The position numbers and the translations under genes were made by a program. This document shows positions 25,401-51,013 of a stretch of 64,000 bases of DNA, one piece after another (position 1 is the first letter of the stretch; each line of letters starts with the position of its first letter). The DNA is from Macrolepiota albuminosa (lineage: Eukaryota > Basidiomycota > Agaricomycetes > Agaricales > Agaricaceae). Location: NCBI GenBank assembly GCA_027475525.1, contig JAMWFC010000054.1, forward strand, positions 310,001-374,000, written 5' to 3'. The notes beneath the pieces were generated by a model. That model did not search any database, was not told the origin of the DNA, and was given only the letters and a program-made list of their open reading frames with translations.

Positions 25401-27441
25401 TGAGGTCTGTCTCGTGGACATGATCCGAAACTTTGACACCGTGCTGCCCAAAAGCCTGGTGGAAGATCATAATTTCAAACCGTCGCTGTGGTACGCTCAC
25501 CAGTGCCAAGCTGCATCCGGAATAGCACTCCATAGGAGACAGTGGTATGACGTAGGACTGGCTTCTGACGTGTGGGCTTGGAACGCGGCCCAAGTGTTGC
25601 AATTAGGTGCCCCGTATCTCCAGGATGAGAACTCCCGGCTCCCCAAGCGATGGGGACGGTTTAAAGTGAATCGAATTACTGATGCCGAGTTCGAAGTGTA
25701 CGATCGAACCCTTGAGTTCCGCGTGAACGTCTCGGAGGAATACCTGAAGAATCCAATGTTTGATATTGTACACTGGTATGAGAAGCAGCTAGATCGAAGG
25801 ATAAGCCAGATTAGAGACGTGTTCTTCGAAGAGGAACGAGAGAGCTTAGGATTAAGTCTGCTCGAATGCAGTCCTGATCAAGAGTCAGCAGACCCCGATC
25901 TGGCAGACCTGTTAAGAATAATAAGCGCGCAGAAGCGACTGCGCATTGAGTCTACACCTACCTCGTTGAGGGTGCTAGAACTTAATGGGCAACAAATTGA
26001 AGCAGGAACTTTCCCGGCGCTGTCTCGTAACAATATTCGGCGTAAGGATATAGCACGAAACATTCCTAAACCGTTGGTGATCGTGGTGAAGCTAGCGGGA
26101 CACCCAGTGCGTGCGCTAGTAGATTCGGGGTCCCTCGGAGACTTTATCTCGACTACTGTGGTGGAACAATTAGAGCTAAAGAAGCAGGAACTGTCACAGG
26201 CCATACCTGTTCTACTGGCCGTGCAAGGATCCCGATCGAAAGTAAATTATGGTGTGACGGCTGAAATCGAATATCAAAGGATTAAAGGACCTCGATATTT
26301 CGACGTCATGAACTTACATGGCTACGATATGATCCTAGGCACGCCATGGATATATCAGCATAAGGTTGCGATTGGTTTGAATCCGCCCCGAGTGATTATT
26401 GGAAGTAGCGAGGCTGTGCCTATGAAGGAAGGTACTGGAGTAACGAGACTTTCGTCTCGGGCTATGGAGCAGGTCGAACAAGACCTCGATACTGTAAGGG
26501 AGGAATTGAAGCAGTATGCAAAGCCAATATGTAAATCGGCCACAGACACACCTCTACCACCTTTACGTGCCATTAACCACGAGATCCCAATCATAGATGA
26601 GAGCGTGATTTACCCCTGGAGACCGTCAAGGTGTCCTGAAGCACTGAGACCATTGTGGGACGAGAAGCGTGCTGCTTACATCAAGACAGGCCGTTGGGAA
26701 GTGACGGCCAGTGGCAACGCAGTGCCTATGATGTTCCTGAAGAAGCCTGGTAAGCCTGGAGAACCGATTCGGTTGCGAAGCGTTATAGACCTCCGGGCTC
26801 GAAACGCAAACACCCATAAGAAGTCGTCACCTTTACCTGACATGGACGGGATCTTGAGGCGTGCCGCTGGTGCTAAGTATAGATCTATAATAGACGGTCA
26901 AGATGCATATGAACAAATCCGTATAAAGCCGGAGCATGTACCGAGAACCACTGTAACCACACCAGACGGAAACATGGTTAGTCATGTCATTCAGCAGGGA
27001 GACTGTAACGCTCCTGCTACTTACCAAGCTCTTATGAACCATCTATTCGCTGCCTACATCGGCCGATTTGTCGATGTATACCTAGATGACATTATAATTT
27101 ATTCGAACTCCTTAGAAGAACATGTCAGACATGTTAAACTAGTCCTGGATATCCTAAAGAGAGAAAAACTGTATCTGAGTGAACGAAAACTCCAATTTTT
27201 ATGCACGGAAATGAAAGTGTTAGGACGCGTAATAACAGATCAAGGTATACGCATGGACCCTGATAAAGTTGATGCGCTGTCGAAGTGGAAAACACCGACT
27301 AATCGTGACCTGTTGAGAGGTTTTCTTGGAGCGGCAGGGTACCTGGCAGATGACATAGACAGAGTTAGGATTCCGATGGGAGTGCTGCATACACTTACGG
27401 GAGACACTGTCCCTTACCGATGGGATCATACTCATCAATGA
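22411..27441 (+). CDS. Gypsy A Gag-protease-reverse transcriptase
   Basis: The 1676-codon frame begins MHTNQNTSSRYPLRTRN. Residues 1-470 are charged and disordered, ending in Ser-rich acidic and Arg/Ser-rich basic stretches. The capsid-like Gag region is about 470-640 (QFMQFMSNCSLYLKHG, FLRGRAWRFYARE, SFHQGKHAVRDYV). A CCHC knuckle CFYCGGKGHFARNC starts at residue 738. An unrecognised domain of about 200 residues (roughly 950-1150, including WYAHQCQAASGIALHRRQWY) precedes the protease, whose VDSGSLGDFIS has its Asp at 1238. The RT follows, with YLDDIIIYS at residue 1557 and DPDKVDALSKWKTPTN. The frame stops at TGA 27439-27441, exactly where relatives have Arg in 'HQrAFe'. It is followed in the same frame by the rest of Pol, so this is one nonsense change or a readthrough site. 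Confidence 0.92.
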   Translation: MHTNQNTSSRYPLRTRNLAATATSQGTRAGLNIRDTGAAGSQARTTQGTEVGTRNPQDRGGTGYNTQSIPEPREPGDPSERESTDTSGVEESEDHLTARDTSELTDLPDELDIEQRLNVDAKPPRRRARVEDEASEQAEPKGLSEEQARAVDSARNNLTEVDRERIDRRYANISVTARNESGMENEREQQEGTSNNKGKGVDPRNWGNIHLTGEEIDPEIQEKILEEYNLAQREREAKDREAIDLQAEGEEEPSEWEEEYIAEQRESEDDDAVDRKERRQSNRMVTALLKATREIEEKERIRAEKKGREYVAPREFTQQLRSLREQLGREDERSGERDTVSKPRKRKSKSKPKKKKKSRTEAMKPAAQIAEESALGQAFRRIGAINDTEPSDDSSSSDSDETSDESYATESETGDSYSDSSSDSRSRGRGHKQRRNSHTHRKKGRKSKSSRRRRKSRRSSSSNDRIRPNPPSTYDGTADVQQFMQFMSNCSLYLKHGHVSRRRQVLIVSQFLRGRAWRFYAREASLDPESWGIDRFFEGLFNDCFPVNFRNQQRNKLNSFHQGKHAVRDYVSGLEELFTIVGYISKRERIVKLFNGFRTSVRKELYKKGLTPETSKWNRIVEEAEFIERSELVDVEDNPSTESRSHKSHRHHHSKDKKKDYKSSEKDDRQSNPGGSSQSKKHSSHHKKTNQTPGFSSMKHKFGGSGGKKEATGSDKPKGEHRKLSKEEIEEYRAAEKCFYCGGKGHFARNCFKNKTVKSSSTRPPGIQSSSIRLDLQEIDRKRDEALEDTTQGLSIGAIGMEPVASNTFESEYDSGEESAWDIISFIFSEDGDERDESNSDDLPDLRQVSDTDESDCDSVPDLQSVSNTDESGYSSSTDEDVHNWIPNSETDPTERNEWPADDTGESDAETREAEVVLSPPRDFGRDVYETDVPNGEIKICHLWKEELARGKPDRIGSAQGRKMEYFLEMRQPYPGDPANCLQFRGRRFLSYDISEDEVCLVDMIRNFDTVLPKSLVEDHNFKPSLWYAHQCQAASGIALHRRQWYDVGLASDVWAWNAAQVLQLGAPYLQDENSRLPKRWGRFKVNRITDAEFEVYDRTLEFRVNVSEEYLKNPMFDIVHWYEKQLDRRISQIRDVFFEEERESLGLSLLECSPDQESADPDLADLLRIISAQKRLRIESTPTSLRVLELNGQQIEAGTFPALSRNNIRRKDIARNIPKPLVIVVKLAGHPVRALVDSGSLGDFISTTVVEQLELKKQELSQAIPVLLAVQGSRSKVNYGVTAEIEYQRIKGPRYFDVMNLHGYDMILGTPWIYQHKVAIGLNPPRVIIGSSEAVPMKEGTGVTRLSSRAMEQVEQDLDTVREELKQYAKPICKSATDTPLPPLRAINHEIPIIDESVIYPWRPSRCPEALRPLWDEKRAAYIKTGRWEVTASGNAVPMMFLKKPGKPGEPIRLRSVIDLRARNANTHKKSSPLPDMDGILRRAAGAKYRSIIDGQDAYEQIRIKPEHVPRTTVTTPDGNMVSHVIQQGDCNAPATYQALMNHLFAAYIGRFVDVYLDDIIIYSNSLEEHVRHVKLVLDILKREKLYLSERKLQFLCTEMKVLGRVITDQGIRMDPDKVDALSKWKTPTNRDLLRGFLGAAGYLADDIDRVRIPMGVLHTLTGDTVPYRWDHTHQ

Positions 27442-27453
27442 GCCTTTGAAGAC

Positions 27454-30400
27454 GTGAAGCGTTCGGCTATACGATGCAAGGATCACCATCGGAGACCAAT
27501 CCAATACAATGATGGAGCGCCACCAGTGAACGTGGTTACTGATGGGTGTGCTACCAGGATAGCTGGAGTCGTTAGTCAGGGACACGATTGGAAAACAGCA
27601 GACGTATCTGCATTTTTCTCAGCAAAACTGAACCCCGCTCAACAGAATTACCCCATCCATAAAGTCGAGATGCTTGCAGGTGTTGAGACAATGTTGAGAT
27701 ATCGTGATATCCTACAGGGTGTAAAGTTTAAATGGTACACAGATCATAAGGGATTAATTCACTTACTTGCGCAAAAGAACTTGTCTGGACGGCAAGCTAG
27801 ATGGTTAGAGAAGATCTCAGAGTTCGACTTTGAGGTGATTTATGTTCCAGGAACGGAGAACATTTTGTCCGATGCATTATCGCGGCTATATTCAAATGAT
27901 GAGACAGGTACAGTGAGATCTCGAAGTGAATACACGTACCATGATGTGATAGATAATGACTATCTGGGAGAGCACATGATCTCAATGCCAGTTCTTGTCG
28001 GAATGGAGGGCGAGAATGCAATAGGTATACGGGATGAACCTGGAATGACAGTGATGGCTACTCCGGGAATCGATCCGGCCCCAAAACGGAGAAATAATAG
28101 AAGCAATGTCGAACCTGCTGAGACTGGAAGACCAGAAACATCGAAAGAGTTTGCTTCAAGAATGAGACGTCATTTTGTCCTTAAAGGCCCCCAAGAACAA
28201 AAGGAGGGCGGGTCCGAAGGGAAAACTGACACTGTTAAAGAAAAGCTAGTCATAAGAATACCGGCAAAAAAGACTGCAGGCACCAAGCCTAATAGCGAGG
28301 AACAAGAAAAGGATGAGCGGCTGGCTGCCCGATCAGATGCCTTAAGAGAACAGATCGAGAGGTTACCACCAATGTCGATCGAAGAATTGGTGAAGGGGAG
28401 CAAGGAGCCAATAGATCTGCTCGAAGCACTGAGGAACAGATACTCGGAGGACAGTCTATTCCAGAAGATAATAGATGACCCGAAAGCATATAAGAACTTT
28501 GAGTGTGAGGAAGGGTTAATTTACCTCCGATCCACAACAGAGAGGACTCTGTGCATTTCATCGATCATTGTGAATGGTCGAAGTGTGCGGGAAATAGTTA
28601 TATCTGAGGCTCATTCTCTATTGGCACATTTAGGACATAGAAAAACGTACACTTACCTGCGCGAGTTGGTCTGGTGGAAGACCATGGATAAAGATGTAAA
28701 GAAGTATTGCGAAACGTGCACAACGTGTATGCGGAGTAAGCCCAACAACCAACGCCCATATGGGCTTCTCAATCCTCTGCAGATACCGACATCACCGTGG
28801 GAGGTAATCGGAATTGACTTTCTTGGGCCTTTGCCAGAATCAAAGGACCGTAACGGCACTTATGATGCAATAACCGTTATTATCGATCTACTGACTGGGA
28901 TGGTACACATTGTTCCTAGCCGCACCGACTACACAGCCCGAAATGTTGCTGAATTGGTGTTCAGCGAAGTATACAAGCATCACGGCTTACCTAAAGCTAT
29001 AGTCAGTGATAGAGACTCTTACTTTACAAGCACCTTCTGGTCTCACCTGCATTCATTGATTGGAACTCAACTTCGAATGTCGTCGGCCTACCACCCCGAA
29101 TCGGATGGGTCCACGGAAAGAGCTAACCGGACGATTACTCAGATGATACGTCAGTGTATAGGGGCTACTCAACGGGATTGGGTTGCCAAGCTACCTGCTA
29201 TTGAGTTTGCGGTGAATTCGGCACGATCCGAGACTACTGGTTACTCACCTTTCTTCTTGAACACGGGCCGTATGCCCAGACCAATGATATGGAAAAGAAC
29301 CTCAAGCTCCGAATTTCCAGGGGTGCGAGTGTTTGCCCAGCGTTTGCGTTTAGCCGTCATGGCCGCACATGATAGCATTATTGGGGCTCGGGTAAAGCAG
29401 ACCCGAGACGCCAACCGTAAGAGAAGAATGGTACCCTTCACTGTAAAGGACTTGGTTTACGTATCTACGGAAAATATGAGTTTTCCAAAAGGGCTTACTC
29501 GTAAATTTATCCCCAAGTTCATTGGACCGTATCCTATTGCGGAGGATTATGGTAACAACTCATTTCAAGTTAAGTTACCAGTCGCCATGACGCGGAGAGG
29601 AATCCATGATGTTTTCCACGCGTCCCTGCTCCGAATACATAAGCCTAATGATGACAGGTTGTTTCCCGGTCGCCTGGATGAACAAATAGTCATTGAGGAC
29701 GCAAGTGAGTGGGCTGTCGACCGGATTGTGGCACACAAGGGCACCCGGACCAATGCGATGTTCGAGGTCCTTTGGAAGGCAGGTGATAAGACATGGATGA
29801 GTTACTCGCAAGTCGAAGAACTCGATATATTGACTCCTTACCTTGACCTGCTAGGGATAGATGGTATTTCCGAGCTCCAGGATGGTGTGGGTGTACCACC
29901 TCCTGATGACCCACAGTCCTATTTAGGGAACCTTGAACTGGCGCCATGTTTAAATGAGGGAGAAGTTACCTGTGATACTGATCAGGACCTCCTATCCCAT
30001 TTCACCTCTCACCTCAGCCTTTCTTCCCTCGACATCCACCCCGACTTCGTTTTTATGCCTGCCTACCGATCCCATCGTGGCCGTGGGGGGCATCACGGTC
30101 CTCCCAGGTATCGATCCCAACGCCAGGGACACCATCCCAGCCCCCCGGAACAGCCTAGCCACCCCTGGGTCTACCAGGACTCTAAAACGCAGCTTATCTG
30201 TCTGACTCCTCCTGACCTGAAGCATGGGTACACCATTCATCCCCTCCAGATGGTTGAGTATCTATCGTTCAACCGGAAGTTATGCCAGAATGGAGGACGT
30301 ACCCGGAAAGCCACCCCCCTCGGGTTCGACACCTTTACGAAGATCTTCAATTCGGTGCCTGCCGACCAATATAAATATCGGTTTGCCACATATGATGACG

Positions 30401-31035
30401 AGGCTGGAAGATGGAAGGCACCTGAGTATCGGGTCAGGTCCCAGCATATTCGCACCCGTTTCGTCGATAAGAAACGATACCGTGATCTCATCACCATGGG
30501 TCTAATCTCAAACCGCGGACACGTCAACTCGGTCATGCTCAATACCACCATGGCTGCGTTGCAGCAGCCTCACATCGCCAATTCGACCAAGAACTATTTC
30601 TACCAGCGGCGTCGTGACGAGCGCCGGGAGCGGGACAACGAGGACAGCGATGAGTCCTACTCCGAGGAGAGCGATGAAGAGGACTTATCTGACAATGATT
30701 CGCGACGTGATCGATCGCGTTCACCCACTCGTGGTTCCAAATCAAATACTCTGCCTCCCGCGCCTCCCAGCTCGCAGATAACCGCTCCGCGTGGATCCCA
30801 GTCGGTACCTTCGAGCAAGGAAGTTGGAAGGAACTCCCGAGGCAGTCCTGTGGTTAGAGGGGCAGATGGAACCTTTTTAGAAAACCGATACGCACCTGAT
30901 AGCCCCCGAGGGACTTGCGATCCCTCTATCCTGATGGGCCCTATCTCAGAAGATGTTCAGATGAAGAATTTGGAGACTGCCAAGACCCACGACGTGTTGT
31001 ACGACCCCGACTTCGATCTAGACCTCAATGTTTGA
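27454..31035 (+). CDS. Gypsy A RNase H-integrase-chromodomain plus long tail
   Basis: This continues the frame of the upstream gag-RT after TGA 27439. RNase H has the catalytic Asp in NVVTDGCATRIAGV and the YTDHKGL motif, ending FDFEVIYVPGTENILSDALS. Integrase has an HHCC zinc finger (HSLLAHLGHRKT then CETCTTCMRSK), then the DDE residues in GIDFLGPLPES, VSDRDSYFTS and ESDGSTERANRT. A chromodomain-like segment follows near 29717-29850 (VDRIVAHKGTRTNAMFEVLW, then DKTWMSYSQVEE), which in relatives guides insertion to chromatin. About 385 more residues follow that the family does not normally have. These include a conserved-looking core (GFDTFTKIFNSVP, RTRFVDKKRYRDLITMG) and an acidic plus Ser/Arg-rich stretch. 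Function of the tail is unknown. Confidence 0.9.
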   Translation: MKRSAIRCKDHHRRPIQYNDGAPPVNVVTDGCATRIAGVVSQGHDWKTADVSAFFSAKLNPAQQNYPIHKVEMLAGVETMLRYRDILQGVKFKWYTDHKGLIHLLAQKNLSGRQARWLEKISEFDFEVIYVPGTENILSDALSRLYSNDETGTVRSRSEYTYHDVIDNDYLGEHMISMPVLVGMEGENAIGIRDEPGMTVMATPGIDPAPKRRNNRSNVEPAETGRPETSKEFASRMRRHFVLKGPQEQKEGGSEGKTDTVKEKLVIRIPAKKTAGTKPNSEEQEKDERLAARSDALREQIERLPPMSIEELVKGSKEPIDLLEALRNRYSEDSLFQKIIDDPKAYKNFECEEGLIYLRSTTERTLCISSIIVNGRSVREIVISEAHSLLAHLGHRKTYTYLRELVWWKTMDKDVKKYCETCTTCMRSKPNNQRPYGLLNPLQIPTSPWEVIGIDFLGPLPESKDRNGTYDAITVIIDLLTGMVHIVPSRTDYTARNVAELVFSEVYKHHGLPKAIVSDRDSYFTSTFWSHLHSLIGTQLRMSSAYHPESDGSTERANRTITQMIRQCIGATQRDWVAKLPAIEFAVNSARSETTGYSPFFLNTGRMPRPMIWKRTSSSEFPGVRVFAQRLRLAVMAAHDSIIGARVKQTRDANRKRRMVPFTVKDLVYVSTENMSFPKGLTRKFIPKFIGPYPIAEDYGNNSFQVKLPVAMTRRGIHDVFHASLLRIHKPNDDRLFPGRLDEQIVIEDASEWAVDRIVAHKGTRTNAMFEVLWKAGDKTWMSYSQVEELDILTPYLDLLGIDGISELQDGVGVPPPDDPQSYLGNLELAPCLNEGEVTCDTDQDLLSHFTSHLSLSSLDIHPDFVFMPAYRSHRGRGGHHGPPRYRSQRQGHHPSPPEQPSHPWVYQDSKTQLICLTPPDLKHGYTIHPLQMVEYLSFNRKLCQNGGRTRKATPLGFDTFTKIFNSVPADQYKYRFATYDDEAGRWKAPEYRVRSQHIRTRFVDKKRYRDLITMGLISNRGHVNSVMLNTTMAALQQPHIANSTKNYFYQRRRDERRERDNEDSDESYSEESDEEDLSDNDSRRDRSRSPTRGSKSNTLPPAPPSSQITAPRGSQSVPSSKEVGRNSRGSPVVRGADGTFLENRYAPDSPRGTCDPSILMGPISEDVQMKNLETAKTHDVLYDPDFDLDLNV

Positions 31036-40518: not shown

Positions 40519-41437
40519 TGATACGAATGCCTCTAAATCGAGGCATAAGAAAGACAAGAAAGGCTCCCTAAAAACAAACAAACCAAACGGTTATCTGCTG
40601 AAAACTGTAAGCAGGCGTCGAAAACTGTAGACGCGGGAGCCTTCACCTCAAAAAAAAAAAGCCTCACGACGTGTAAAAACGACGAACCCAGCACGTAAAC
40701 AGCCAAGTAGAGATGCGCCGAATATCCGATCAAAGGGGATAGCCGACAGTGGCGGTGCTCGGCAGTCAGATCCGGCATCAACCATCAAAAAGAACTATCC
40801 CCGAGTGACGACGTACCATTGGAAACAACGATGAGCCTCGTCCTCAGCACCTCGACACGTTGTACCACGACCACGCAACCACGACAGGCCGCTCTGGCAA
40901 AAGAAGGAAGAAGGATAACCAAAGAGTTAGAAGGGTAGGAAGAGCCGAAGAAAAAGATGGACGAACCTTTAGCCACGACGCCAAGCGCCGGCACAAACAG
41001 CAACCGAGGTCCAGACCCGGTACAACGCTACGCCGAGCGCCAGTCGTGCGCACAACATAAAAATACACGAGGGATTCGACGGTCCGTGCGTCGAAGGAGG
41101 CAGTATAAAGAGGAGGGGAATTTGGGGGAGTCGGGCAAGCAACGCACTTGCCACGGCTCGGAGTCCCCAGGGAGCGGACATCTTAGGCCAGCCGCATAAT
41201 AGTTGACTTCGGGTTTTATTAGTAATTAATACTATTTGATTCCCAAATTTTAGTGTGAATTTTGATTTGCATTACAATTTTAAAATCAATAAAAATTATA
41301 ACAACACTACTTTACGGAGTGTGCGTGCGCGTAACTAAGCCCCACGATCTTAGTGAAGTTAAGTTGACTTATTTAAAAGTCTAGTCTTATTCCGTTAAGG
41401 CTACTTTACAATATAAGTAAACTTACATTTCGCATCA
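40519..41437 (+). repeat. 5' LTR of gypsy element B
   Basis: It matches 50095-51013 over 919 bp. It carries a TATA box at 41104 and an AATAAA at 41288. The candidate primer binding site TGGAGCCCACC starts three bases after the LTR end; the tRNA was not identified. Confidence 0.95.
41104..41109 (+). promoter_or_regulatory. TATA box in gypsy B 5' LTR
   Basis: TATAAA in the context CAGTATAAAGAGGAGG sits about 180 bases before AATAAA at 41288, the arrangement expected for U3-R of an LTR. It is repeated at 50680 in the 3' LTR. Confidence 0.6.
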
Positions 41438-41482: not shown

Positions 41483-43054
41483 TTGTCGGACTTCCATTTG
41501 GAGTCCAAAAACCCAAAAAGAAACATTAGTTTCGCACCGCCAGGTTCTTGGCCCGGCACGCCTAAGGTTACTACACCAAGGGCAAAAACCATTATTTCTC
41601 CCAGGAGAAGAGAAACTCGTGCATCCTCCAAGGGCACAGTTGCTAGTCTCCCGGATCCAGACGCTGTACTTCGTAAACGAAAACTTCGGACTGAGAAGTA
41701 CATGCCTACACCACAAACACCTAAGTCTTCATTGTCTGAGCCAACTAAGTTGACCAGCATTATGGAGCAACCCATGCGCTATAAAATGCCATTGCCTGAA
41801 AGTAGAGATGCACCTAAGTTCAGAAGCAGTGAGCCTGCTGAGGTTCACAGGTTTCTGCAGAGAATGCAGTCTCTATTCAATCATGCAGGCATTGTGGAGG
41901 ATGGAGAAAAGAAGAAGAGGTTATTAGAATATGTGGATGCAGAAACTGAGCAGGAATGGAGAGGTTTCGATAGTTTTGAGGATAGATATCCTTGGGCCAC
42001 CTTTATAAAGGAGGTTAAGGAATCATACCCTGAAGCTATGGATGAGGCAGGAAGCATGGCAAACCTGGATAGGATCTGTAGGGAGCATGCCAGGCTAAGC
42101 AGAGGGGATGCCCCTGAGCTGCACTCCTTAATCAGAAAATTCAGGGCTGAAGCCAAAAAGCTGGACAGTGTTGTAGGGAATGGGGTATTGGTGGATAAGT
42201 TTATGGGGTGTTTTACACCCACCCTGGCAGAGTTAGTGGAGGAGAGACTCATCCACAAACATGGCCATTACAGGGATCCTGCTCGTAATCGTCACAAGGA
42301 CAACAAATATGACTTGTCTGAAGTGATTGCAGTAGTGACAGCCCTAGTAGATGGGACAACTGTCAGGAAGACTAGGGGAGAAACCACCAACAGGGAGGTG
42401 GGTGGAGTAGTAGTGAAAAATGAGGAGGCAGAAGAAAGGATGGCTCATCTGCAAGACTCCATGGTTGCTATTGGGAAGCAGGTTGGCAGCATCCAAAGTG
42501 CTATGCAGGCTCTGCAAAATAGCCAACTGGACATAAGGAATGCCTTCCTAACTACCAAAAGCCACCATGGAGGGCAAACAGAGAGGCCTGCTCAGGCCAT
42601 GATGCCAACCCCTGGTGGAAGCACATACTGCTTCTACTGTTGGGGAACTGGTCATCGTATAGCTGAGTGTGAGCAGGTGAAATCAGATGTTCAAAAGGGA
42701 TGGGTGATACTAGTGGATGGAAGGACCAGGATGCCCAACAGAGCCCCTCTACCCAGAGAGCCATCAAGCATATCACCACATGATAGAGTAATGAAGTTAC
42801 ATGACTCTCAAGTGGGGTTGTACTTTGGCTGGGCTGAGGAAGCTCAAGACATCCCAACCTACTCTACTTACACCAATGCTGTAAGAGATACTAGGGATGA
42901 CATGTTGGAGCGCATCCAGCATGGAGAGGCAGACAGGCTAGGGGAACTGGAAAAAGGCTTTCAAAGACTGACAGAAGTCATGTCAGTCTTAGTCAACACC
43001 AGGCATGCTCCTAGTCCTGGTGAAGGACAACAAGGAGGGTCCAAGGATTTTTGA
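41483..43054 (+). CDS. Gypsy B Gag
   Basis: An open frame of 523 codons; the first ATG in frame is at 41702 (MPTPQTPKSSLSEP), so the real start may be there. The Gag core reads APKFRSSEPAEVHRFLQRMQ, LLEYVDAETEQEWRGF and GVLVDKFMGCF. A coiled-coil-like stretch follows (MAHLQDSMVAIGKQVGSIQS). A CCHC knuckle CFYCWGTGHRIAEC near 42640 binds the element RNA. The stop TGA at 43052-43054 overlaps the protease frame, which lies in the -1 frame, at a run of five T. Confidence 0.9.
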   Translation: MSDFHLESKNPKRNISFAPPGSWPGTPKVTTPRAKTIISPRRRETRASSKGTVASLPDPDAVLRKRKLRTEKYMPTPQTPKSSLSEPTKLTSIMEQPMRYKMPLPESRDAPKFRSSEPAEVHRFLQRMQSLFNHAGIVEDGEKKKRLLEYVDAETEQEWRGFDSFEDRYPWATFIKEVKESYPEAMDEAGSMANLDRICREHARLSRGDAPELHSLIRKFRAEAKKLDSVVGNGVLVDKFMGCFTPTLAELVEERLIHKHGHYRDPARNRHKDNKYDLSEVIAVVTALVDGTTVRKTRGETTNREVGGVVVKNEEAEERMAHLQDSMVAIGKQVGSIQSAMQALQNSQLDIRNAFLTTKSHHGGQTERPAQAMMPTPGGSTYCFYCWGTGHRIAECEQVKSDVQKGWVILVDGRTRMPNRAPLPREPSSISPHDRVMKLHDSQVGLYFGWAEEAQDIPTYSTYTNAVRDTRDDMLERIQHGEADRLGELEKGFQRLTEVMSVLVNTRHAPSPGEGQQGGSKDF

Positions 43055-44076
43055 GGAGCTCAAGGAAGGAAGTGAGGGAAGCTCCACCAGGGATACCCAC
43101 ATTTCCAGAGAGGCAGCCACAAAATTCCTGGAAAGAAAAGCTAACTTTGAGGATTCCACCCAAAGTGGCACCCAAGTTGGACTTACCTTTTGAAAAGGTG
43201 CCAGCTTTGAATGAGAGGCAGGAGGTACCAGTGCAGGACACTGGTAGGAGTTCCATTCAGGGAACTAGGAAGGAGCTGGAGAAGATGGTTGAGAAGCTGT
43301 GGGAGGTACCAGTGCCACTAACCACCAGAGAACTTCTGGATGTGGCACCTGGTTTGAGGGAGGTCATGGTACAAAAGTTGGTACCAAAGCCTCCCAGGCC
43401 TAAGGAACCCAATATTCCTAGGACAGCTACTCAACACCTGACAGCAGTGGAGAAAGAGCCTAACAAGGTAGATGTTAATGATCTACCTATGGCCACCTAC
43501 TTCATTGCAGATGGAACACAATCTGGCTTGCCTACTGGTGCAGTAGTGCACCAGGATTGTGTTGCCACTTACTTGGAAAATATCCCAACAGGAGAAAAGC
43601 CAGTAGTGGTATATGTAGCCAGGGAGTTGCAGGTTCTGAGATCTCTCAACCCAGTTGTCAATCAAAAGGGAAGAGCAGAGGCAATTCTAGATAGTGGATC
43701 TCAAATAGTCTGCATGGCTTTAAGAGAGGCTCTCAATCTAGGATTGACTTGGGATCCAGACATTAGGCTGAGGATGGAGAGTGCCAATCAGCAAGTGAAT
43801 GAATCTGTTGGTTTAGCACGTAATGTGCCATTCACTTTTGCAGAAGGGTTCACTATCTATCTACAAGTGCATATTTTTGAGAGTCCTGCTTATACTGTCT
43901 TATTGGGTCGTCCATTTGACACCTTGACAGAAAGCAACATTCAAAACTTGCAGGATGGCAGCGCCATCATCACCATTCGAGACCCTAATACAGGTCGTCG
44001 AACTGCCCTGCCTACTATTGAAAGAGGCAAAATGCCAAAGGCAGGGGCTGCTAGGGAGAGTGAAGCAAAATTTTGA
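43051..44076 (+). CDS. Gypsy B aspartic protease frame
   Basis: The frame opens in -1 relative to gag and has no ATG at its start, so it is expected to be made by frameshift or restart. The first 200 residues are Pro/Lys-rich linker. The protease core has AEAILDSGSQIVCMALREAL (catalytic Asp at 43690) and YTVLLGRPFDTL with the flap and second hydrophobic-Gly motif. It stops with TGA at 44074, again overlapping the next frame in -1. It would process the Gag-Pol particle proteins. Confidence 0.88.
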   Translation: MRSSRKEVREAPPGIPTFPERQPQNSWKEKLTLRIPPKVAPKLDLPFEKVPALNERQEVPVQDTGRSSIQGTRKELEKMVEKLWEVPVPLTTRELLDVAPGLREVMVQKLVPKPPRPKEPNIPRTATQHLTAVEKEPNKVDVNDLPMATYFIADGTQSGLPTGAVVHQDCVATYLENIPTGEKPVVVYVARELQVLRSLNPVVNQKGRAEAILDSGSQIVCMALREALNLGLTWDPDIRLRMESANQQVNESVGLARNVPFTFAEGFTIYLQVHIFESPAYTVLLGRPFDTLTESNIQNLQDGSAIITIRDPNTGRRTALPTIERGKMPKAGAARESEAKF

Positions 44077-47000
44077 GTCTCGAGGAACTGGTTACAGACC
44101 AGGGAGAGATTGCAATAAGTCTTGCTGAGACTCAGGAAGGGGAGATTGTGGTGACTGGATATTCTATGGAACATAGTAAATTCAGTCAGGAAGAGTTGAG
44201 AGATGTGTACTTGCATGCTTTTACAGCAAGCAAGGAGTGTGAAGAGAAGGAGCAGAAGACATTGTCAGCATATTTGAATGGGCATTTAGCTCAGATACCT
44301 GACAGTCTTGAGGAGCTGCTAGTACAAGAGGAAAACTTAGAGTCAAAAGCAGGTGTGGGGGAGACTGCCCAAGTATTTTCTAAGAAATACAAACCTGTGG
44401 CTAGAAAAGTTAAGCCTGTACTAGGTACCTCACCTGAGGAGTTTAGAATTGAAAGGTGCATTACTGGAGACCCACTGGCAGACATGCCTCAGTTGGATCC
44501 CAATCCACCAGAGTTCAAACCCACAGGGAGATACACAGCTGAGTGCAAAGAAGTCATTGACCAAGCCCATGGTGATGGTTTTCTTTGGCCAGAGGAGATG
44601 AAAGCAGTACATCACCTTATGATGCTGCAAAACCAGGCTTTTGCATGGGATGATGCTCAAAGAGGAAGGCTGAAGGAGGAATTCTTCCCTCCAGTAATCA
44701 TGCCAGTAATACCTCACACCCCTTGGGTGTTGAAGAACATTCCTATTGCCCCAGGCCTTAGGGATAGAATCTGCCAAATGATAAAGCAGAAGATTGAGGC
44801 AGGGGTCTATGAGCCCTCTAACTCCTCATATCGCTCCCAATGGTTTACAGTGTTAAAGAAGGATGGTGAAAGCTTGAGGATAGTCCATAGCTTGGAGCCT
44901 TTGAATAAAGTGACCATAGCACATTCTGGGTTGCCACCAGCAACTGAGGAATTAGCTAGTCACTTCTCAGGCAGGGCTTGTGGAGGAATCTTTGACTTGT
45001 ATGTAGGATATGATGAGAGAGTACTAGATGTGCGCTCTAGAGATTATACTACATTCCAGACACCATTTGGTGCTCTGAGGTTGGTTACCTTACCAATGGG
45101 ATGGACAAATTCAGTGCCTATCTTCCATGATGATATTACATTCATCTTGAAGGATGAGATACCACATGTAACTTGGCCATACATTGATGATGTACCAGTC
45201 AGAGGGCCACCTCATAGATATGAGTTGCCAGATGGTAGCTGTGAAGTCATACCAGAGAATCCAGGCATTAGGAGATTTGTATGGGAACACCTACTCAATG
45301 TGAATAGAGTGTTACAAAGAATCAAATATGCAGGAGGGACTTTCTCTGGAAAGAAGTCAGTAGTATGTGCAGATGAGATTGTGGTTGTTGGCCATAGATG
45401 CTCTTATGAAGGGCAGAAGCCAGAGACCAAGAGATTTGCCATAGTGATGGGATGGGGTGACTGCAGGGATAAACATGAAGTAAAGTCATTCTTAGGGACC
45501 TGTGGTACCTTTAGATCCTTTATCAAGGATTATGCTAAGGTAGCAGCACCTATCAATAAACTTACTCAGAATAATGTACCTTTTACTTGGGGAGAAGAAC
45601 AGCGCTCTGCAATGGCACAAATGAAAAAGTTGCTAGCAGAAAGTGCTCCTTTAAAACCCATTGACTATGAGTCAGGAGGTGCAGTAGTTCTGTCAGTGGA
45701 TACATCCTGGATGGCAGTAGGTTTTGGAATCTTCCAAGAAGACCCAGACAATCCTAAAATGCGCACTTGTGCCAAGTTAGGATCTATCACCCTGAATGAG
45801 AGAGAAGCTAGATTTTCTCAACCAAAAAGAGAGCTGTATGGTCTCATGAGATCTCTGCTAGCCAACAAGCATTGGCTAGTTGGTTGTAGAAAACTAGTGA
45901 TAGAGACAGATGCCAAGTATCTTAAAGGGATGCTAGGAAATCCTGGAGTAGGACCCAATGCCACCATCATGAGATGGATTGAGAATGTCCTACTCTACCA
46001 CTTTACCTTAAGGCATGTGCCAGGCAAAACATTCAGTGTGGATGGATTGTCAAGACGGCCTAAACAACCAGGAGATGAGGAGTACCCACCAGTTGATCCT
46101 GAGTTAATGGATGAACCCAAGTCTATGAACTATGAGTATCCAGACAAGATCAATAATATACCTGGTTGGGAGGGTTGGGAACCTTTGGAACTTGAAGAGT
46201 TTGCAGATCAAATTGACACTAGAGGTGGCTATCTAAACATGGTAGCTACTGAAGTATCAGACTTTGAGCAAGAACTTTGTAGAGCCAGGTCCCAAGAGCA
46301 GGAGCTTAGGGATGGCATCTTGAGTCAAACCCCAGGAACAAGCATGAACCCAGTAGCAGTATTAGCTATGACCATGCCTCTGTTACCAGTGGAAGACCAA
46401 GAAGTCAGAGTAGAGGACACACAAACCTACCTAGAACACAGGAAAGGTAGTGAGGGTGAAGACTGGGATAATCTGCTACCCACTGTTCAGAGTTGGTTGC
46501 AAGACCCAGGTACAGAACCCAAGAATCTACAAGGCTGGGATCTAGAGAAGTTTAAGAAGTTTGCTAGGCAATTCTTCTTTGACAAGAAAGGGAGATTGTA
46601 TAAGCGCTGTCATGAGGAGAAACATAAACTAGTAGTCCAAATTGATAGACGAATGTTCATGCTTAAATCAGCCCATGATGCCTTAGGACATAGGGGAGCC
46701 TATGCCACCAAAATGCTTATACAGGAGCGCTTCTGGTGGCCTGGCATTGAAGGGGATGTGCAGTGGTATGTTGGGACTTGTCACAATTGTCAAATCAGAC
46801 AAAAGACAGTAGTCAACAGAGAACCAACTGTAACTTATACTCCTTCCATCTTCCAAACAATTCACATTGATACCATGCACATGACACCAGCCTCCAATGG
46901 CTGTAAGTACATAGTACATGGCAGGTGTGCCTTGTCTTCTTGGATGGAAGGTAGACCCCTGAGGAAGGAGAACCATAAGACCATTGGTCAATGGTTGTTT

Positions 47001-47897
47001 GAAGATGTGATTTGCCGCTGGGGCTGCATTGCAGAAATCATCACAGATAATGCTGGACAGTTCAAGCAGGTCACTGCCTGGTTGGAAAAGAAGTATGGGA
47101 TTAGAGGTATTACTATCTCCCCTTACAACTCACCAGCTAATGGTAGAATTGAAAGACCTCATTGGGATGTCAGGCAAGCTTTGTTCAAGGCCTGTGAGGA
47201 TCGCACTAAATGGTTCTGGTTCTTCTACCATGTAATGTGGAGTGACAGGATAACCATTAGGCAGAGGTTTGGATGCTCACCATACTTCATGGTCACTGGT
47301 GCACATCCTACTCTACCCTTGGATCTAGCAGAGGCCACCTGGTTGGTAGAACTACCAGAGGGACCTCTGACTACAGGGGAGTTGATTGGATATCGTGCTA
47401 GAGCTCTAGCCAAACACCATCAACATGTGGAGGAAATGAGAGAGAGAGTTGGGAAGGCTAAGCTCCAGTGGGCATTGAAGTTTGCAGAAGAGCATAAAAG
47501 CTCAATCAAAGACTTCAATTTTAAACCATTAGACTTGGTACTAGTCAAAAACATGACTACAGAAAGTTCATTCAGTGCTAAGATGTTGCCACGATTCCAT
47601 GGGCCTATGGTAGTAATTGCCAAGACTCAGGGTGGTAACTACATTGTAGCAGAACTAGATGGGTCAGTTTGGCAAGCACGGGTAGCTGCTTTTCGAGTTG
47701 TACCTTACAAGGCTCGTAAAAAGCTGATCTTGCCTCAAGGCATAGAGAAGTGGGTGGATATTACACCTGCTAAGCTAAAAGAGCTAAGGGAAGAACTACG
47801 AAAACCTACAGAGCTAATCACCAAGGACATCTCCTTTGGCACAGTAAGGCTCCATGAGCCCACTGACCAGGAGTTGGGTCTGTCTCCAACTGATTAA
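44073..47897 (+). CDS. Gypsy B reverse transcriptase-RNase H-integrase
   Basis: An open frame of 1274 codons. RT motifs are SYRSQWFTVLKKDGESLRIV, FQTPFGALRLVTLPMGW and YIDDVPVRGP (active site at residue 370), a variant typical of one basidiomycete gypsy lineage. RNase H has VLSVDTSWMAVGFGIF, ELYGLMRSL, IETDAKYLKG and HVPGKTFSVDGLSR. The integrase zinc finger is HDALGHRGAYATK with CHNCQIRQK. The core has HIDTMHMT, EIITDNAGQFKQ and NGRIERPHWD for the DDE triad. No chromodomain was recognised; the C-terminus ends LHEPTDQELGLSPTD. The first ATG in frame is well inside, so it is likely expressed as a fusion. Confidence 0.92.
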   Translation: MSLEELVTDQGEIAISLAETQEGEIVVTGYSMEHSKFSQEELRDVYLHAFTASKECEEKEQKTLSAYLNGHLAQIPDSLEELLVQEENLESKAGVGETAQVFSKKYKPVARKVKPVLGTSPEEFRIERCITGDPLADMPQLDPNPPEFKPTGRYTAECKEVIDQAHGDGFLWPEEMKAVHHLMMLQNQAFAWDDAQRGRLKEEFFPPVIMPVIPHTPWVLKNIPIAPGLRDRICQMIKQKIEAGVYEPSNSSYRSQWFTVLKKDGESLRIVHSLEPLNKVTIAHSGLPPATEELASHFSGRACGGIFDLYVGYDERVLDVRSRDYTTFQTPFGALRLVTLPMGWTNSVPIFHDDITFILKDEIPHVTWPYIDDVPVRGPPHRYELPDGSCEVIPENPGIRRFVWEHLLNVNRVLQRIKYAGGTFSGKKSVVCADEIVVVGHRCSYEGQKPETKRFAIVMGWGDCRDKHEVKSFLGTCGTFRSFIKDYAKVAAPINKLTQNNVPFTWGEEQRSAMAQMKKLLAESAPLKPIDYESGGAVVLSVDTSWMAVGFGIFQEDPDNPKMRTCAKLGSITLNEREARFSQPKRELYGLMRSLLANKHWLVGCRKLVIETDAKYLKGMLGNPGVGPNATIMRWIENVLLYHFTLRHVPGKTFSVDGLSRRPKQPGDEEYPPVDPELMDEPKSMNYEYPDKINNIPGWEGWEPLELEEFADQIDTRGGYLNMVATEVSDFEQELCRARSQEQELRDGILSQTPGTSMNPVAVLAMTMPLLPVEDQEVRVEDTQTYLEHRKGSEGEDWDNLLPTVQSWLQDPGTEPKNLQGWDLEKFKKFARQFFFDKKGRLYKRCHEEKHKLVVQIDRRMFMLKSAHDALGHRGAYATKMLIQERFWWPGIEGDVQWYVGTCHNCQIRQKTVVNREPTVTYTPSIFQTIHIDTMHMTPASNGCKYIVHGRCALSSWMEGRPLRKENHKTIGQWLFEDVICRWGCIAEIITDNAGQFKQVTAWLEKKYGIRGITISPYNSPANGRIERPHWDVRQALFKACEDRTKWFWFFYHVMWSDRITIRQRFGCSPYFMVTGAHPTLPLDLAEATWLVELPEGPLTTGELIGYRARALAKHHQHVEEMRERVGKAKLQWALKFAEEHKSSIKDFNFKPLDLVLVKNMTTESSFSAKMLPRFHGPMVVIAKTQGGNYIVAELDGSVWQARVAAFRVVPYKARKKLILPQGIEKWVDITPAKLKELREELRKPTELITKDISFGTVRLHEPTDQELGLSPTD

Positions 47898-48597
47898 AAT
47901 CCAGAAAAGATGAACTATATTTCTAAAAAGAAATAACAATAGTTCAGGCCCAGGCAGGATTTAACAGTATAAGGAGAAAAAGGTGGTCAGTAGGAAGAGG
48001 CACTCAAGAAAAGTACTAGTCTAAGACTGGCTACCACTCAAATACAGAAAAGATCCTTGATTTAAGACCATAACTAATTAAGTTTACAATGGGACATGAG
48101 CACAAAAGTGCTAATGTGCGAGTTAAAAACTAAAAGGTTATGGTTTAATAAGGATTTAAGGCGCCGACGTTCTAGTACGAACCTAACCCGTGGTCTAAGA
48201 AAGAGTCGAGCGTTGACACAATACGTCAACGCGCGAGTTCGAAACCAGGCAGGGGATAAAAGGTCTACGTAGACATGGGCATAGCAGGCCAACGTGCGAG
48301 TTCGAACCCAGCAAAGAACTAAAAACGTTGACTAAAAATAGTGAGCGTTCAAGTTTGAAACTGAGGAAAAAGCATGGGGAGACGGTGTGTCGAGAGTTCG
48401 AGCCCCAGGGGGGGGGAATAAAATAAAATTCCGAAGAAAAGAACGAAACGTGTGGTTATCAATCAAAAACTTAAACATCGCACGTTTCGGACTTAAGGAA
48501 TATATTGGGGTACTACGAAGTAAAGAGGGAAGGGGGGGGATTATATTGAGACTAAACTAGGCAAACACAGAATCGGTGTTTGCAACGAGGAAGTCTT
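47898..48597 (+). other. Gypsy B region between pol and antisense gene
   Basis: Non-coding. It holds a degenerate repeat of a GAGTTCGAA motif and G-runs. It would form the 3' side of both the plus-strand pol and the minus-strand accessory gene. Confidence 0.6.
48180..48415 (+). repeat. Degenerate repeats with B-box-like GAGTTCGAA
   Basis: CGCGAGTTCGAAACC (about 48231), GTGCGAGTTCGAACCC (about 48293), CAAGTTTGAAAC (about 48350) and GAGAGTTCGAGCCCC (about 48388) recur at 45-62-base steps. They resemble the tRNA T-arm or Pol III B box GGTTCGANNCC. No full tRNA fold was found. Confidence 0.5.
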
Positions 48598-49877
48598 TTA
48601 TACCGCCACGGCGTCTTCGGTTGCGTCCTGCGGGAGGTCCTGAAATTCAATATCGGAGTCGTCGTTACCGGACTGTGAAACAAACAGAAAAAGTAATAAG
48701 ACCTGACAATAGAAAAGAAGTAAGGACATACTGGCAAGGAGACCTGAAGCGCGTGGAGCAACGAGCCAGCTTGGTCAACCTCAGAGGGACCAAGAACCTT
48801 GCTGAGACGCGCACGGCGTTCGGAGATCATCTTGAAGGTCTGCAGCACGATGTCAAGCTGGTAAAGTTGAAGCTGTGCAGCTACGTCGACCGCGTCGCAG
48901 TGCCTCTGAAGTTCAGCTTGAGGAACGGAGTCGTCGTCGTCAGCCAGTTGGACCGCGTCCAAGACCTGGTCCACCTCGGAAAGTAGCGCCAGTGCTGCCT
49001 CGCTACCAGGAACATGGCTAGCTGGGTGACAAGAAGGATGAGAAAAGGGACAACGAAAGATAACAAAGGGAACGCACCAAGTGATGGATGCACCCTGAGT
49101 TTCTTTGCCCTTGGTTTCCCCTCGGGCTCGACCTGAGGAGGGGGAAGAGACAACGTCAGCGTGTCCAAGCGACGCACAACTAAGTCAAGCTTGCGAGCTA
49201 GAACTTACGTTAGCACGGCGTTTTGCGGGGCGCGGAGTAGGCGTACCGAGCATCTCGACATCTTTGTCCTGTGCGCGACGCAGTACCTGTAGCAAAAGAA
49301 TCAGGATTACAAGTAGAGGAACTGAAAGGGGAACTTACCTCCTCGCGCTCCTTCCTAAGTTTTTCGTTCTGTGCAACGACGAGGAAAGCGTCAACGAAGG
49401 AAAAGAATGCCTTCACGTCGCCCGAATCATCAGCGGCACTGCGATCAAGTAAGGGAAGGATGCCGGAGAGAGTCTCGCAAAGACCTCTCTGTTCAGAGAG
49501 ACGACCAAAGGTGCTCTCATCAGCAAAACGCTGTGAAAAGCATCAGACGGAAGGGGGAAGAGGGAAAAAGAAGAACAGACCCAGCCAGCGCCACCTAAGA
49601 ACCGAGCACGGTCGGCAGGTGTTCCAGGAAAAGACCTGGCAGTGGCACAGAGGCCAATTGCAGCCTCTGCGAACCATGGGTACTTGAACACGGACGTTAT
49701 AACCTTGTTGCCATCGCGCTTGACAGCGCGCTGGAACAAGCCATAAAAATCCGTCGGAACAGGCGCAGGCTGGGGAGGCGGAGCAGGTGGCTTTGGAGGG
49801 GTCGAAATGACGACTTGAGGACGCGGTCTAGCGTTTGCAGACTTGCGAGGAGCAGTGGGGACACCGGAAGGAGCCAT
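48598..49877 (-). CDS. Antisense six-exon accessory gene in gypsy B
   Basis: Exons on the minus strand are 49877-49581, 49530-49339, 49286-49209, 49132-49078, 49021-48744 and 48672-48598, giving 324 residues plus TAA. Five introns of 50-76 nt end in AG with pyrimidine-rich tracts and all keep frame; donors are GTAAGT twice, GTGCGT once and weaker GTCTGT and GTCTCC. The protein starts MAPSGVPTAPRKSANARPRP, a Pro-rich arm. A folded-looking domain follows (DFYGLFQRAVKRDGNKVITS, FKYPWFAEAAIGLCATARSF), then RLSEQRGLCETLSGILPLLD. Two basic clusters (RPAKRRAN, KPRAKKLRV) could be nuclear signals. Next come a helical region (ALALLSEVDQVLDAVQLADD, RHCDAVDVAAQLQLYQLDIV) and an acidic tail. No family was recognised. 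A roughly 190-residue N-terminal half plus coiled region suggests a nucleic-acid or Gag-binding regulator, but that is inference. Confidence 0.8.
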
Positions 49878-50086
49878 GCTCAGGAATGAGGGCAGGCATC
49901 GTCGTTTTAAGCTGGTACGGGTATGATCGAACGACTCAGGAGAGGGAAAAGCGAAAAATTTTATTCTCTATCTACTGCAGATACGGAAGACAAATTTTAA
50001 GACTTTGGCTCGGAGAAAATTGAAAATGGAAAGGCTGGGCTCACCAGGCTGGTTTACGATGACTGAGGACAGTCATTACATAGTGT

Positions 50087-50094: not shown

Positions 50095-51013
50095 TGATAC
50101 GAATGCCTCTAAATCGAGGCATAAGAAAGACAAGAAAGGCTCCCTAAAAACAAACAAACCAAACGGTTATCTGCTGAAAACTGTAAGCAGGCGTCGAAAA
50201 CTGTAGACGCGGGAGCCTTCACCTCAAAAAAAAAAAGCCTCACGACGTGTAAAAACGACGAACCCAGCACGTAAACAGCCAAGTAGAGATGCGCCGAATA
50301 TCCGATCAAAGGGGATAGCCGACAGTGGCGGTGCTCGGCAGTCAGATCCGGCATCAACCATCAAAAAGAACTATCCCCGAGTGACGACGTACCATTGGAA
50401 ACAACGATGAGCCTCGTCCTCAGCACCTCGACACGTTGTACCACGACCACGCAACCACGACAGGCCGCTCTGGCAAAAGAAGGAAGAAGGATAACCAAAG
50501 AGTTAGAAGGGTAGGAAGAGCCGAAGAAAAAGATGGACGAACCTTTAGCCACGACGCCAAGCGCCGGCACAAACAGCAACCGAGGTCCAGACCCGGTACA
50601 ACGCTACGCCGAGCGCCAGTCGTGCGCACAACATAAAAATACACGAGGGATTCGACGGTCCGTGCGTCGAAGGAGGCAGTATAAAGAGGAGGGGAATTTG
50701 GGGGAGTCGGGCAAGCAACGCACTTGCCACGGCTCGGAGTCCCCAGGGAGCGGACATCTTAGGCCAGCCGCATAATAGTTGACTTCGGGTTTTATTAGTA
50801 ATTAATACTATTTGATTCCCAAATTTTAGTGTGAATTTTGATTTGCATTACAATTTTAAAATCAATAAAAATTATAACAACACTACTTTACGGAGTGTGC
50901 GTGCGCGTAACTAAGCCCCACGATCTTAGTGAAGTTAAGTTGACTTATTTAAAAGTCTAGTCTTATTCCGTTAAGGCTACTTTACAATATAAGTAAACTT
51001 ACATTTCGCATCA
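50095..51013 (+). repeat. 3' LTR of gypsy element B
   Basis: It matches 40519-41437 base for base in all stretches compared, including an 11-A run, and is followed by the CTGT target duplication. Short open frames inside it are repeated in both LTRs and are not considered genes. Confidence 0.95.

What the first reader, a model, noticed from the sequence alone, without database searches (positions are those of the whole stretch)
48598..49877. Intact six-exon gene antisense to gag-pol inside an LTR retrotransposon
Between pol and the 3' LTR of gypsy element B, the opposite strand holds an open gene whose six exons (297, 192, 78, 55, 278 and 75 nt) join in frame over five GT-AG introns of 50-76 nt to give 324 residues. 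Introns in the sense strand would be lost when the genomic RNA is spliced and copied; antisense introns are not. Their presence therefore argues for real antisense transcription inside the element. The protein has a Pro-rich arm, a compact N-terminal domain, two basic clusters and an acidic tail, and matches no family I recognise. Retroviral antisense genes such as HTLV HBZ and antisense frames of some plant gypsy elements are loose parallels. A regulator of Gag, transcription or integration is a possible role.
Basis: partly seen in the sequence, partly recalled or inferred. Interest (0 to 1): 0.9.

Follow-up and report, generated by a model that had tools for sequence, protein, structure and literature searches.

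The report
Spliced antisense gene in fungal retrotransposons
A family of jumping genes in a mushroom carries, on the strand opposite to its own proteins, a complete intron-rich gene for an unknown protein that evolution keeps intact and that seems to be made in two spliced versions; its role is not yet known.

Summary
The gene is real. On the minus strand between pol and the 3' LTR of a young Ty3/gypsy element, six exons join over five GT-AG introns (328 aa; exon 5 is 290 nt, not 278). It is a family feature, not a one-off capture: at least 55 places in this genome, 34 of the 39 pol copies scored, and 88 annotated Termitomyces proteins are relatives. Of 26 distinct copies modelled, 20 were kept as intact; median dN/dS is about 0.115. 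Five near-identical insertions, each with its own 4-bp target duplication, all carry the five introns. (1) 'Intron 3' is 76 nt in 16 of 20 copies because it is coding: a second, mutually exclusive splice choice with its own selected frame swaps a basic stretch for a helical one. (2) gag-pol is mostly 95-99% identical between copies, but everything after the pol stop is deeply diverged and recombining. Elements without the gene also moved recently, so it is not needed in cis. No family, fold or function match was found and no RNA data were at hand. Best guess: a trans-acting nuclear regulator of the element. Antisense ORFs at this place are known in plants and in Botrytis Boty; this six-exon, alternatively spliced form is a new variant.

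The parts
40519..41437 (+). 5' LTR (919 nt), identical to the 3' LTR
41483..43054 (+). gag ORF (523 codons from a TTG by the ORF lister; CCHC-type motif CFYCWGTGHRIAEC seen by eye)
43051..44076 (+). aspartic protease ORF
   Evidence: PF13650 E 2.9e-4, under the curated cut-off
44073..47897 (+). pol ORF: RT, RNase H, integrase
   Evidence: Ty3-G Gag-Pol E 2.3e-24 and PFV integrase E 2e-12
49581..49877 (-). antisense gene (ANT) exon 1, 297 nt, ATG at 49877
49531..49580 (-). intron 1, 50 nt, GTCTGT..CAG
49339..49530 (-). ANT exon 2, 192 nt
49287..49338 (-). intron 2, 52 nt, GTAAGT..CAG
49209..49286 (-). ANT exon 3, isoform A, 78 nt (ends in ...PRPAKRRAN)
49133..49208 (-). intron 3 of isoform A, 76 nt; its 3' part is coding in isoform B
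49247..49286 (-). inferred isoform B exon 3 (40 nt), donor CTCG|GTACGC
49198..49246 (-). inferred isoform B intron, 49 nt, holding GCTAAC and ending TTCTAG
49078..49197 (-). inferred isoform B exon 4 (120 nt), KLDLVVRRLDTLTLSLPPPQ then VEPEGKP; full isoform 337 aa
49078..49132 (-). ANT exon 4, isoform A, 55 nt
49022..49077 (-). intron 4, 56 nt, GTGCGT..CAG
48732..49021 (-). ANT exon 5, 290 nt (reader: 278)
48673..48731 (-). intron 5, 59 nt, GTATGT..CAG
48598..48672 (-). ANT exon 6, 75 nt with stop
49960..49965 (-). TATA-like AATAAA, 88 nt before the ATG; such a site 83-94 nt before the ATG in 17 of 20 copies
48501..48506 (-). poly(A)-signal-like AATATA 91 nt after the stop; a like site at 85-92 nt in 16 of 20 copies
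50095..51013 (+). 3' LTR; first part (U3-like, to about 50650) strongly diverged between copies, last part (R-U5-like) less
   Evidence: U3/R/U5 borders inferred, not mapped

Best explanation
An element-borne accessory gene. Shown by sequence: a complete intron-rich gene on the strand opposite to gag-pol, in most copies of a Ty3/gypsy family, under purifying selection, with a second selected coding frame inside intron 3. Inferred: it is transcribed from its own promoter in the spacer before the 3' LTR, and spliced in two mutually exclusive ways around GCTAACGTAAGTTCTAG. That stretch serves as codons plus the donor of isoform A, or as branch site plus acceptor of isoform B. Isoform A (328 aa) holds a basic KRR-x-KPRAKK stretch that looks like a nuclear signal. 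Isoform B (337 aa) replaces KRR with a helix-forming KLDLVVRRLDTL stretch. Most likely mechanism (inferred, about 0.45): a trans-acting nuclear protein with a compact N-terminal domain and a helical C-terminal half that tunes expression of the family's own elements, with the isoform choice setting its place or partner. That the gene is real and selected I hold at about 0.95; the two-isoform reading at about 0.8.
For: Structure kept in 20 of 26 distinct copies; median dN/dS 0.115 for the gene against 0.083 for pol over 178 usable of 190 pairs; the gene frame has the highest synonymous share of six frames in five of six exons and ties with one element-strand frame in exon 6 (0.42 each). Intron 3 frame B: 828 synonymous to 409 other changed-codon pairs and 0 stops in 16 copies, other frames 0.13 and 0.06 synonymous with 35 and 24 stops; the same segment occurs in Termitomyces protein models. 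Five insertions with their own 4-bp duplications carry the gene. TATA-like site in 17 of 20 and poly(A)-like site in 18 of 20 copies. Confident N-terminal domain, pLDDT about 97 over residues 31-160 of relative P0001.
Against: No RNA or protein data. Elements without the gene moved recently (C62 LTR pair 99.5-100%; C24 and C68 3' parts 99.6% alike), so it is not essential in cis. The KRR is kept in only 11 of 16 copies, so the nuclear signal is weak evidence. No family, PDB sequence or fold match points to DNA binding or regulation. A link between gene and U3 types fades with distance and looks like plain linkage. Among the closest pairs dN/dS rises to about 0.4, as expected of decaying or relaxed copies. 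Copies analysed for codons were chosen as stop-free.
Confidence: 0.5

Rival explanations
1. Accessory protein of the particle or of integration: the protein acts with Gag, cDNA or integrase (particle assembly, nuclear import or target choice) rather than on transcription.
For: Long helices (126-168, 236-280 in the P0001 model) and an acidic tail suit a binding partner; plant authors propose nuclear transport roles for like proteins (passages).
Against: No sequence relation to gag (hhalign probability 0.1); gag and pol are nearly uniform while this gene is deeply diverged, which argues against a tightly matched partner; gene-less elements move.
Confidence: 0.25
2. The antisense RNA is what matters: transcription toward pol makes double-stranded RNA or interferes with the sense transcript, and the protein is secondary.
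For: The transcript is complementary to the genomic RNA 3' region; reviews raise this for plants (passages); small RNAs derive from a Botrytis gypsy element (passages).
Against: An RNA-only role does not explain dN/dS 0.115, constant exon lengths with varying introns, or a second coding frame in intron 3.
Confidence: 0.12
3. Passenger: a host gene captured once and carried without use to the element.
For: Intron-rich and GC3 0.57, against 0.47, 0.43 and 0.42 in gag, protease and pol, like a host gene; dispensable in cis.
Against: Purifying selection across copies with dS near 1.4; all 88 relatives in the profile search are from one genus and no copy was seen that is clearly outside an element, though 21 of 55 places were not checked for neighbours beyond the listed pol copies.
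Confidence: 0.08
4. Artefact: chance open frames and chance splice sites.
Against: Recurrence of the six-exon structure over strongly diverged copies and independent annotation of relatives in Termitomyces.
Confidence: 0.01

Closest known systems
Plant aORF-3R elements (maize Grande gene23, rice RIRE2, Silene Retand, Phaseolus PvRetro13)
   Same: Extra gene between pol and 3' LTR, opposite to gag-pol, in most copies, protein unlike others, function unknown (PMC7264820 passages and section 5; Retand passages).
   Different: Different protein (no TRP28 or other Pfam hit at its cut-off). I saw no report of several introns or of alternative splicing in the passages read; a search of the Retand paper for 'intron' gave 0 occurrences.
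Botrytis cinerea Boty (BcGypsy1) antisense gene brtn
   Same: Fungal gypsy element with an antisense gene between pol and 3' LTR (cited in PMC7264820, and PMC8365987 passages).
   Different: An ascomycete element. Its sequence was not at hand and the original paper (Zhao 2011) was not read, so homology and intron content are untested.
HTLV-1 HBZ and related retroviral antisense genes
   Same: Spliced antisense gene at the 3' end (recalled), nuclear regulator (passage).
   Different: HBZ is a bZIP protein whose promoter lies in the 3' LTR (recalled; passage on the promoter). No bZIP match here; the TATA-like site lies in the spacer outside the LTR.
Yeast Ty1 copy number control (p22/p18)
   Same: A family-type-specific self-encoded regulator, with mosaic subfamilies made by recombination (abstract of PMC7055915).
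   Different: [quoted passage not shown] this protein is antisense and unlike gag.

Membership tests
Ty3/gypsy LTR retrotransposon | Paired LTRs and target-site duplication | tested here: met
   919-nt identical LTRs; 4-bp duplications in 5 of 5 near-identical copies
Ty3/gypsy LTR retrotransposon | Order protease, RT, RNase H, integrase | tested here: met
   Protease ORF, then RT-RNase H like Ty3-G at pol 235-677, then integrase at 823-1070; Pfam RVT_1 itself gave no match at E 0.001
Antisense aORF between pol and 3' LTR (aORF-3R) | Place and orientation | tested here: met
   pol and LTR on opposite strand to the gene in 26 of 30 loci
Antisense aORF between pol and 3' LTR (aORF-3R) | Present in most copies of the family | tested here: met
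   34 of 39 pol copies scored
Antisense aORF between pol and 3' LTR (aORF-3R) | Antisense transcript | not testable with these tools
   no RNA data
Boty brtn | Sequence homology to brtn | not tested
   brtn sequence not at hand
HBZ-like bZIP regulator | bZIP domain | tested here: not met
   no bZIP among Pfam hits at E up to 1 in 7 relatives
Retand TRP28 protein (PF04195) | TRP28 domain | tested here: not met
   not among Pfam hits at E up to 1 in 7 relatives
Ty1 p22-like Gag-derived factor | Sequence derived from gag | tested here: not met
   hhalign of 61-sequence profile with gag: probability 0.1, E 0.68
Any solved fold | Fold match of the confident domain | tested here: inconclusive
   [not shown]

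The most novel reading that the evidence does not exclude
The region after pol is a swappable type cassette: an alternatively spliced antisense regulator with a matching U3, diversified so that each type controls its own kind, much as the immunity region of lambdoid phages (recalled) sits in an otherwise shared genome. Uniform gag-pol beside deeply divergent antisense genes and U3 is what this predicts. The matching of gene and U3 was tested and is not shown: the link fades with distance.
Probability: 0.13. Interest if true: 0.88.

Novelty: new variant of a known kind. Interest (0 to 1): 0.64.

Why it matters
Antisense accessory genes of LTR retrotransposons are known but unexplained. This family offers dozens of diverged copies in one genome, a selected protein, a splice switch readable from sequence alone, and natural elements with and without the gene. 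That makes the function of such genes testable in a fungus. It also shows that a multi-intron gene can travel by reverse transcription if it lies antisense, and that gene annotation of mushrooms counts such retrotransposon genes as host 'hypothetical proteins'.

Tried and rejected
Chance ORF: rejected. Sense-strand ORFs over the same region (48576-48986, 49105-49452, 49271-49687 +): in five of six exons the gene-strand frame has the higher synonymous share; in exon 6 the best element-strand frame ties (0.42) but has a stop in 18 of 19 copies. The gene-strand frame being stop-free there is partly by selection of the copies.

Gene-U3 co-evolution: a whole-gene Mantel test looked positive (rho 0.33, p 0.005), but split by exons it holds only for exons 1-2 next to U3 (0.40) and not for exons 5-6 (0.06), and the two halves of the gene do not correlate with each other (-0.01). 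Read as linkage plus recombination.

A hairpin-like GCAAACAC-N7-GTGTTTGC just after the stop was seen and not tested for covariation. The species of the window was not identified. Promoter and terminator programs were not run, being bacterial. A Pfam call with pieces of pol failed on wrong coordinates and was not repeated; one search answered the question.

Full report
WHAT IS THERE. The window lies in a 100.1-Mb genome (G000:C89), species not named. The element has identical 919-nt LTRs at 40519-41437 and 50095-51013, gag, protease and pol in sense, and RT-RNase H and integrase like Ty3 and foamy virus. On the minus strand, between the pol stop (47897) and the 3' LTR, six exons join to 328 residues. 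I call the gene ANT.

A FAMILY FEATURE. From the rows shown I counted 55 distinct places; 34 of the 39 pol copies scored have ANT within 2.5 kb downstream. Of the 30 loci held with 1.5-kb flanks, 26 show pol on one side and 27 an LTR match on the other; the five near-identical copies are among them, and in L046 and L066 the LTR match is only a short patch. Five copies (C89, C110, C94, C27, C26) are 100% alike over the gene and sit in different flanks with 4-bp duplications CTGT, CTGT, TTGT, ATGA and ATAC. So the element moved with all five introns in place, as expected if they lie antisense to the genomic RNA.

RELATIVES ELSEWHERE. A single-sequence search gave 19 proteins, all named Termitomyces, E up to 6e-46. 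A profile search gave 88, all rows named Termitomyces (7995 candidates scored). They are annotated as hypothetical proteins. Gag relatives were found in Termitomyces, Tephrocybe rancida, Arthromyces matolae, Tricholoma furcatifolium and three unnamed records, 14 in all. Absence of ANT from the other genera is not shown; the search depends on annotation and shared words.

SELECTION. Of 27 differing copies, two (L039, L040) have the same gene, leaving 26. Six were dropped: four with internal stops under the projected model (L062, L063, L064, L065), one with a poor model (L061), one without a model (L068). In the other 20, exon lengths barely vary while introns 1, 2, 4 and 5 range over 46-60, 50-74, 49-82 and 53-141 nt; 17 of 20 have GT-AG throughout. 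Over 190 pairs the median dN is 0.158 and dS 1.36 for ANT, 0.015 and 0.177 for the last part of pol; median dN/dS 0.115 and 0.083 (178 usable pairs; pairs are not independent). By part: N arm 0.21, domain 0.10 and 0.14, basic linker 0.09, C helices 0.10, acidic tail 0.26. The closest pairs reach about 0.4, as decaying insertions would.

THE SPLICE SWITCH. Intron 3 is 76 nt in 16 of 20 copies and 75-77 in 18. Its 3' part reads KLDLVVRRLDTLTLSLPPPQ in frame with exon 4. Several Termitomyces models contain this segment instead of the KRR segment. The route is a 49-nt intron from CTCG|GTACGC to TTCTAG. GCTAACGTAAGTTCTAG is then either codons plus donor (A) or branch site plus acceptor (B). In the 16 copies tested (L045, L054, L059 and L067 left out) frame B shows 828 synonymous against 409 other changed-codon pairs and no stop; the other two frames show 0.13 and 0.06 synonymous shares and 35 and 24 stops. 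The full isoform B frame is open in 15 of 16; in L049 the script took a later AG. The isoform-A-only stretch is also selected, less strongly (0.43 against 0.12 and 0.10). In L045 and L059 the A donor reads AT, while the B acceptor AG remains. A rough pattern count over 89 Termitomyces proteins gave 23 A-type, 24 B-type, 8 with both and 34 unclassed; it misfiles some (P0011 holds both). So both choices are probably used; RNA must show it.

SIGNALS OF A TRANSCRIPTION UNIT. A TATA-like site lies 83-94 nt before the ATG in 17 of 20 copies; a poly(A)-like site lies within 160 nt after the stop in 18 of 20, at 85-92 nt in 16; simple shuffles average 2.6 and 1.8 of 20, but the copies are related.

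THE MOSAIC. Identity between copies drops from 0.91-0.99 in pol to about 0.6-0.75 right after the pol stop, to 0.4-0.65 in the first part of the LTR, and recovers in parts of the last third (0.80 and 0.73, then 0.56). Pol DNA is mostly 95-98%, gag mostly 97-99% with some copies near 90%. ANT and pol distances do not correlate (rho -0.04, p 0.62), nor do the two halves of ANT. The simplest reading is that one gag-pol has spread by recombination through a pool of old 3' regions. Why those regions are so diverse is open.

DISPENSABLE IN CIS. C62, C24 and C68 carry this gag-pol or pol with a short 3' region lacking ANT. The C62 LTRs are 100% (332 nt) and 99.55% (666 nt) alike; C24 and C68 are 99.6% alike over 1290 nt. 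A fourth, C114, keeps exon 6 and then runs into other sequence that looks like a nested element. The fifth, C65, was not looked at. Gene-less elements may borrow the protein in trans; that is untested.

WHAT IS KNOWN. Antisense ORFs between pol and the 3' LTR are described in plants and in fungal Boty; their function is unknown and authors suggest regulation (PMC7264820, passages and section 5; PMC11963269, passages; PMC8365987, passages). Searches on antisense genes in LTR elements, Termitomyces and Lyophyllaceae, brtn and gene23 listed no paper that I recognised as describing this gene or a multi-intron, alternatively spliced gene of this kind; subscription papers are mostly not held. Verdict: a real, selected, new variant of a known kind.

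Noticed in passing
G000:C106:2374381-2388088 (L081 covers part): LTR pair 82% like the window's LTR, U3 included, around an internal region in which the 5 kb read show no match to this element's gag, pol or ANT: an LTR type shared with another kind of element.
   Followed up: partly
L070 (C62), L071 (C24), L072 (C68): Gene-less 3' regions with the same pol; L070 and L071 each hold a 77-nt exact tandem duplication.
   Followed up: partly
window 48540-48590, minus strand: Inverted repeat GCAAACAC-N7-GTGTTTGC about 14 nt after the ANT stop, similar in most copies printed.
   Followed up: no
window 50172-50273: A patch of the otherwise diverged first part of the LTR aligns at 77-92% in many copies; a possible regulatory site.
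   Followed up: no
window 22411-31035: Two long plus-strand ORFs (1676 and 1193 aa), probably another retroelement.
   Followed up: no
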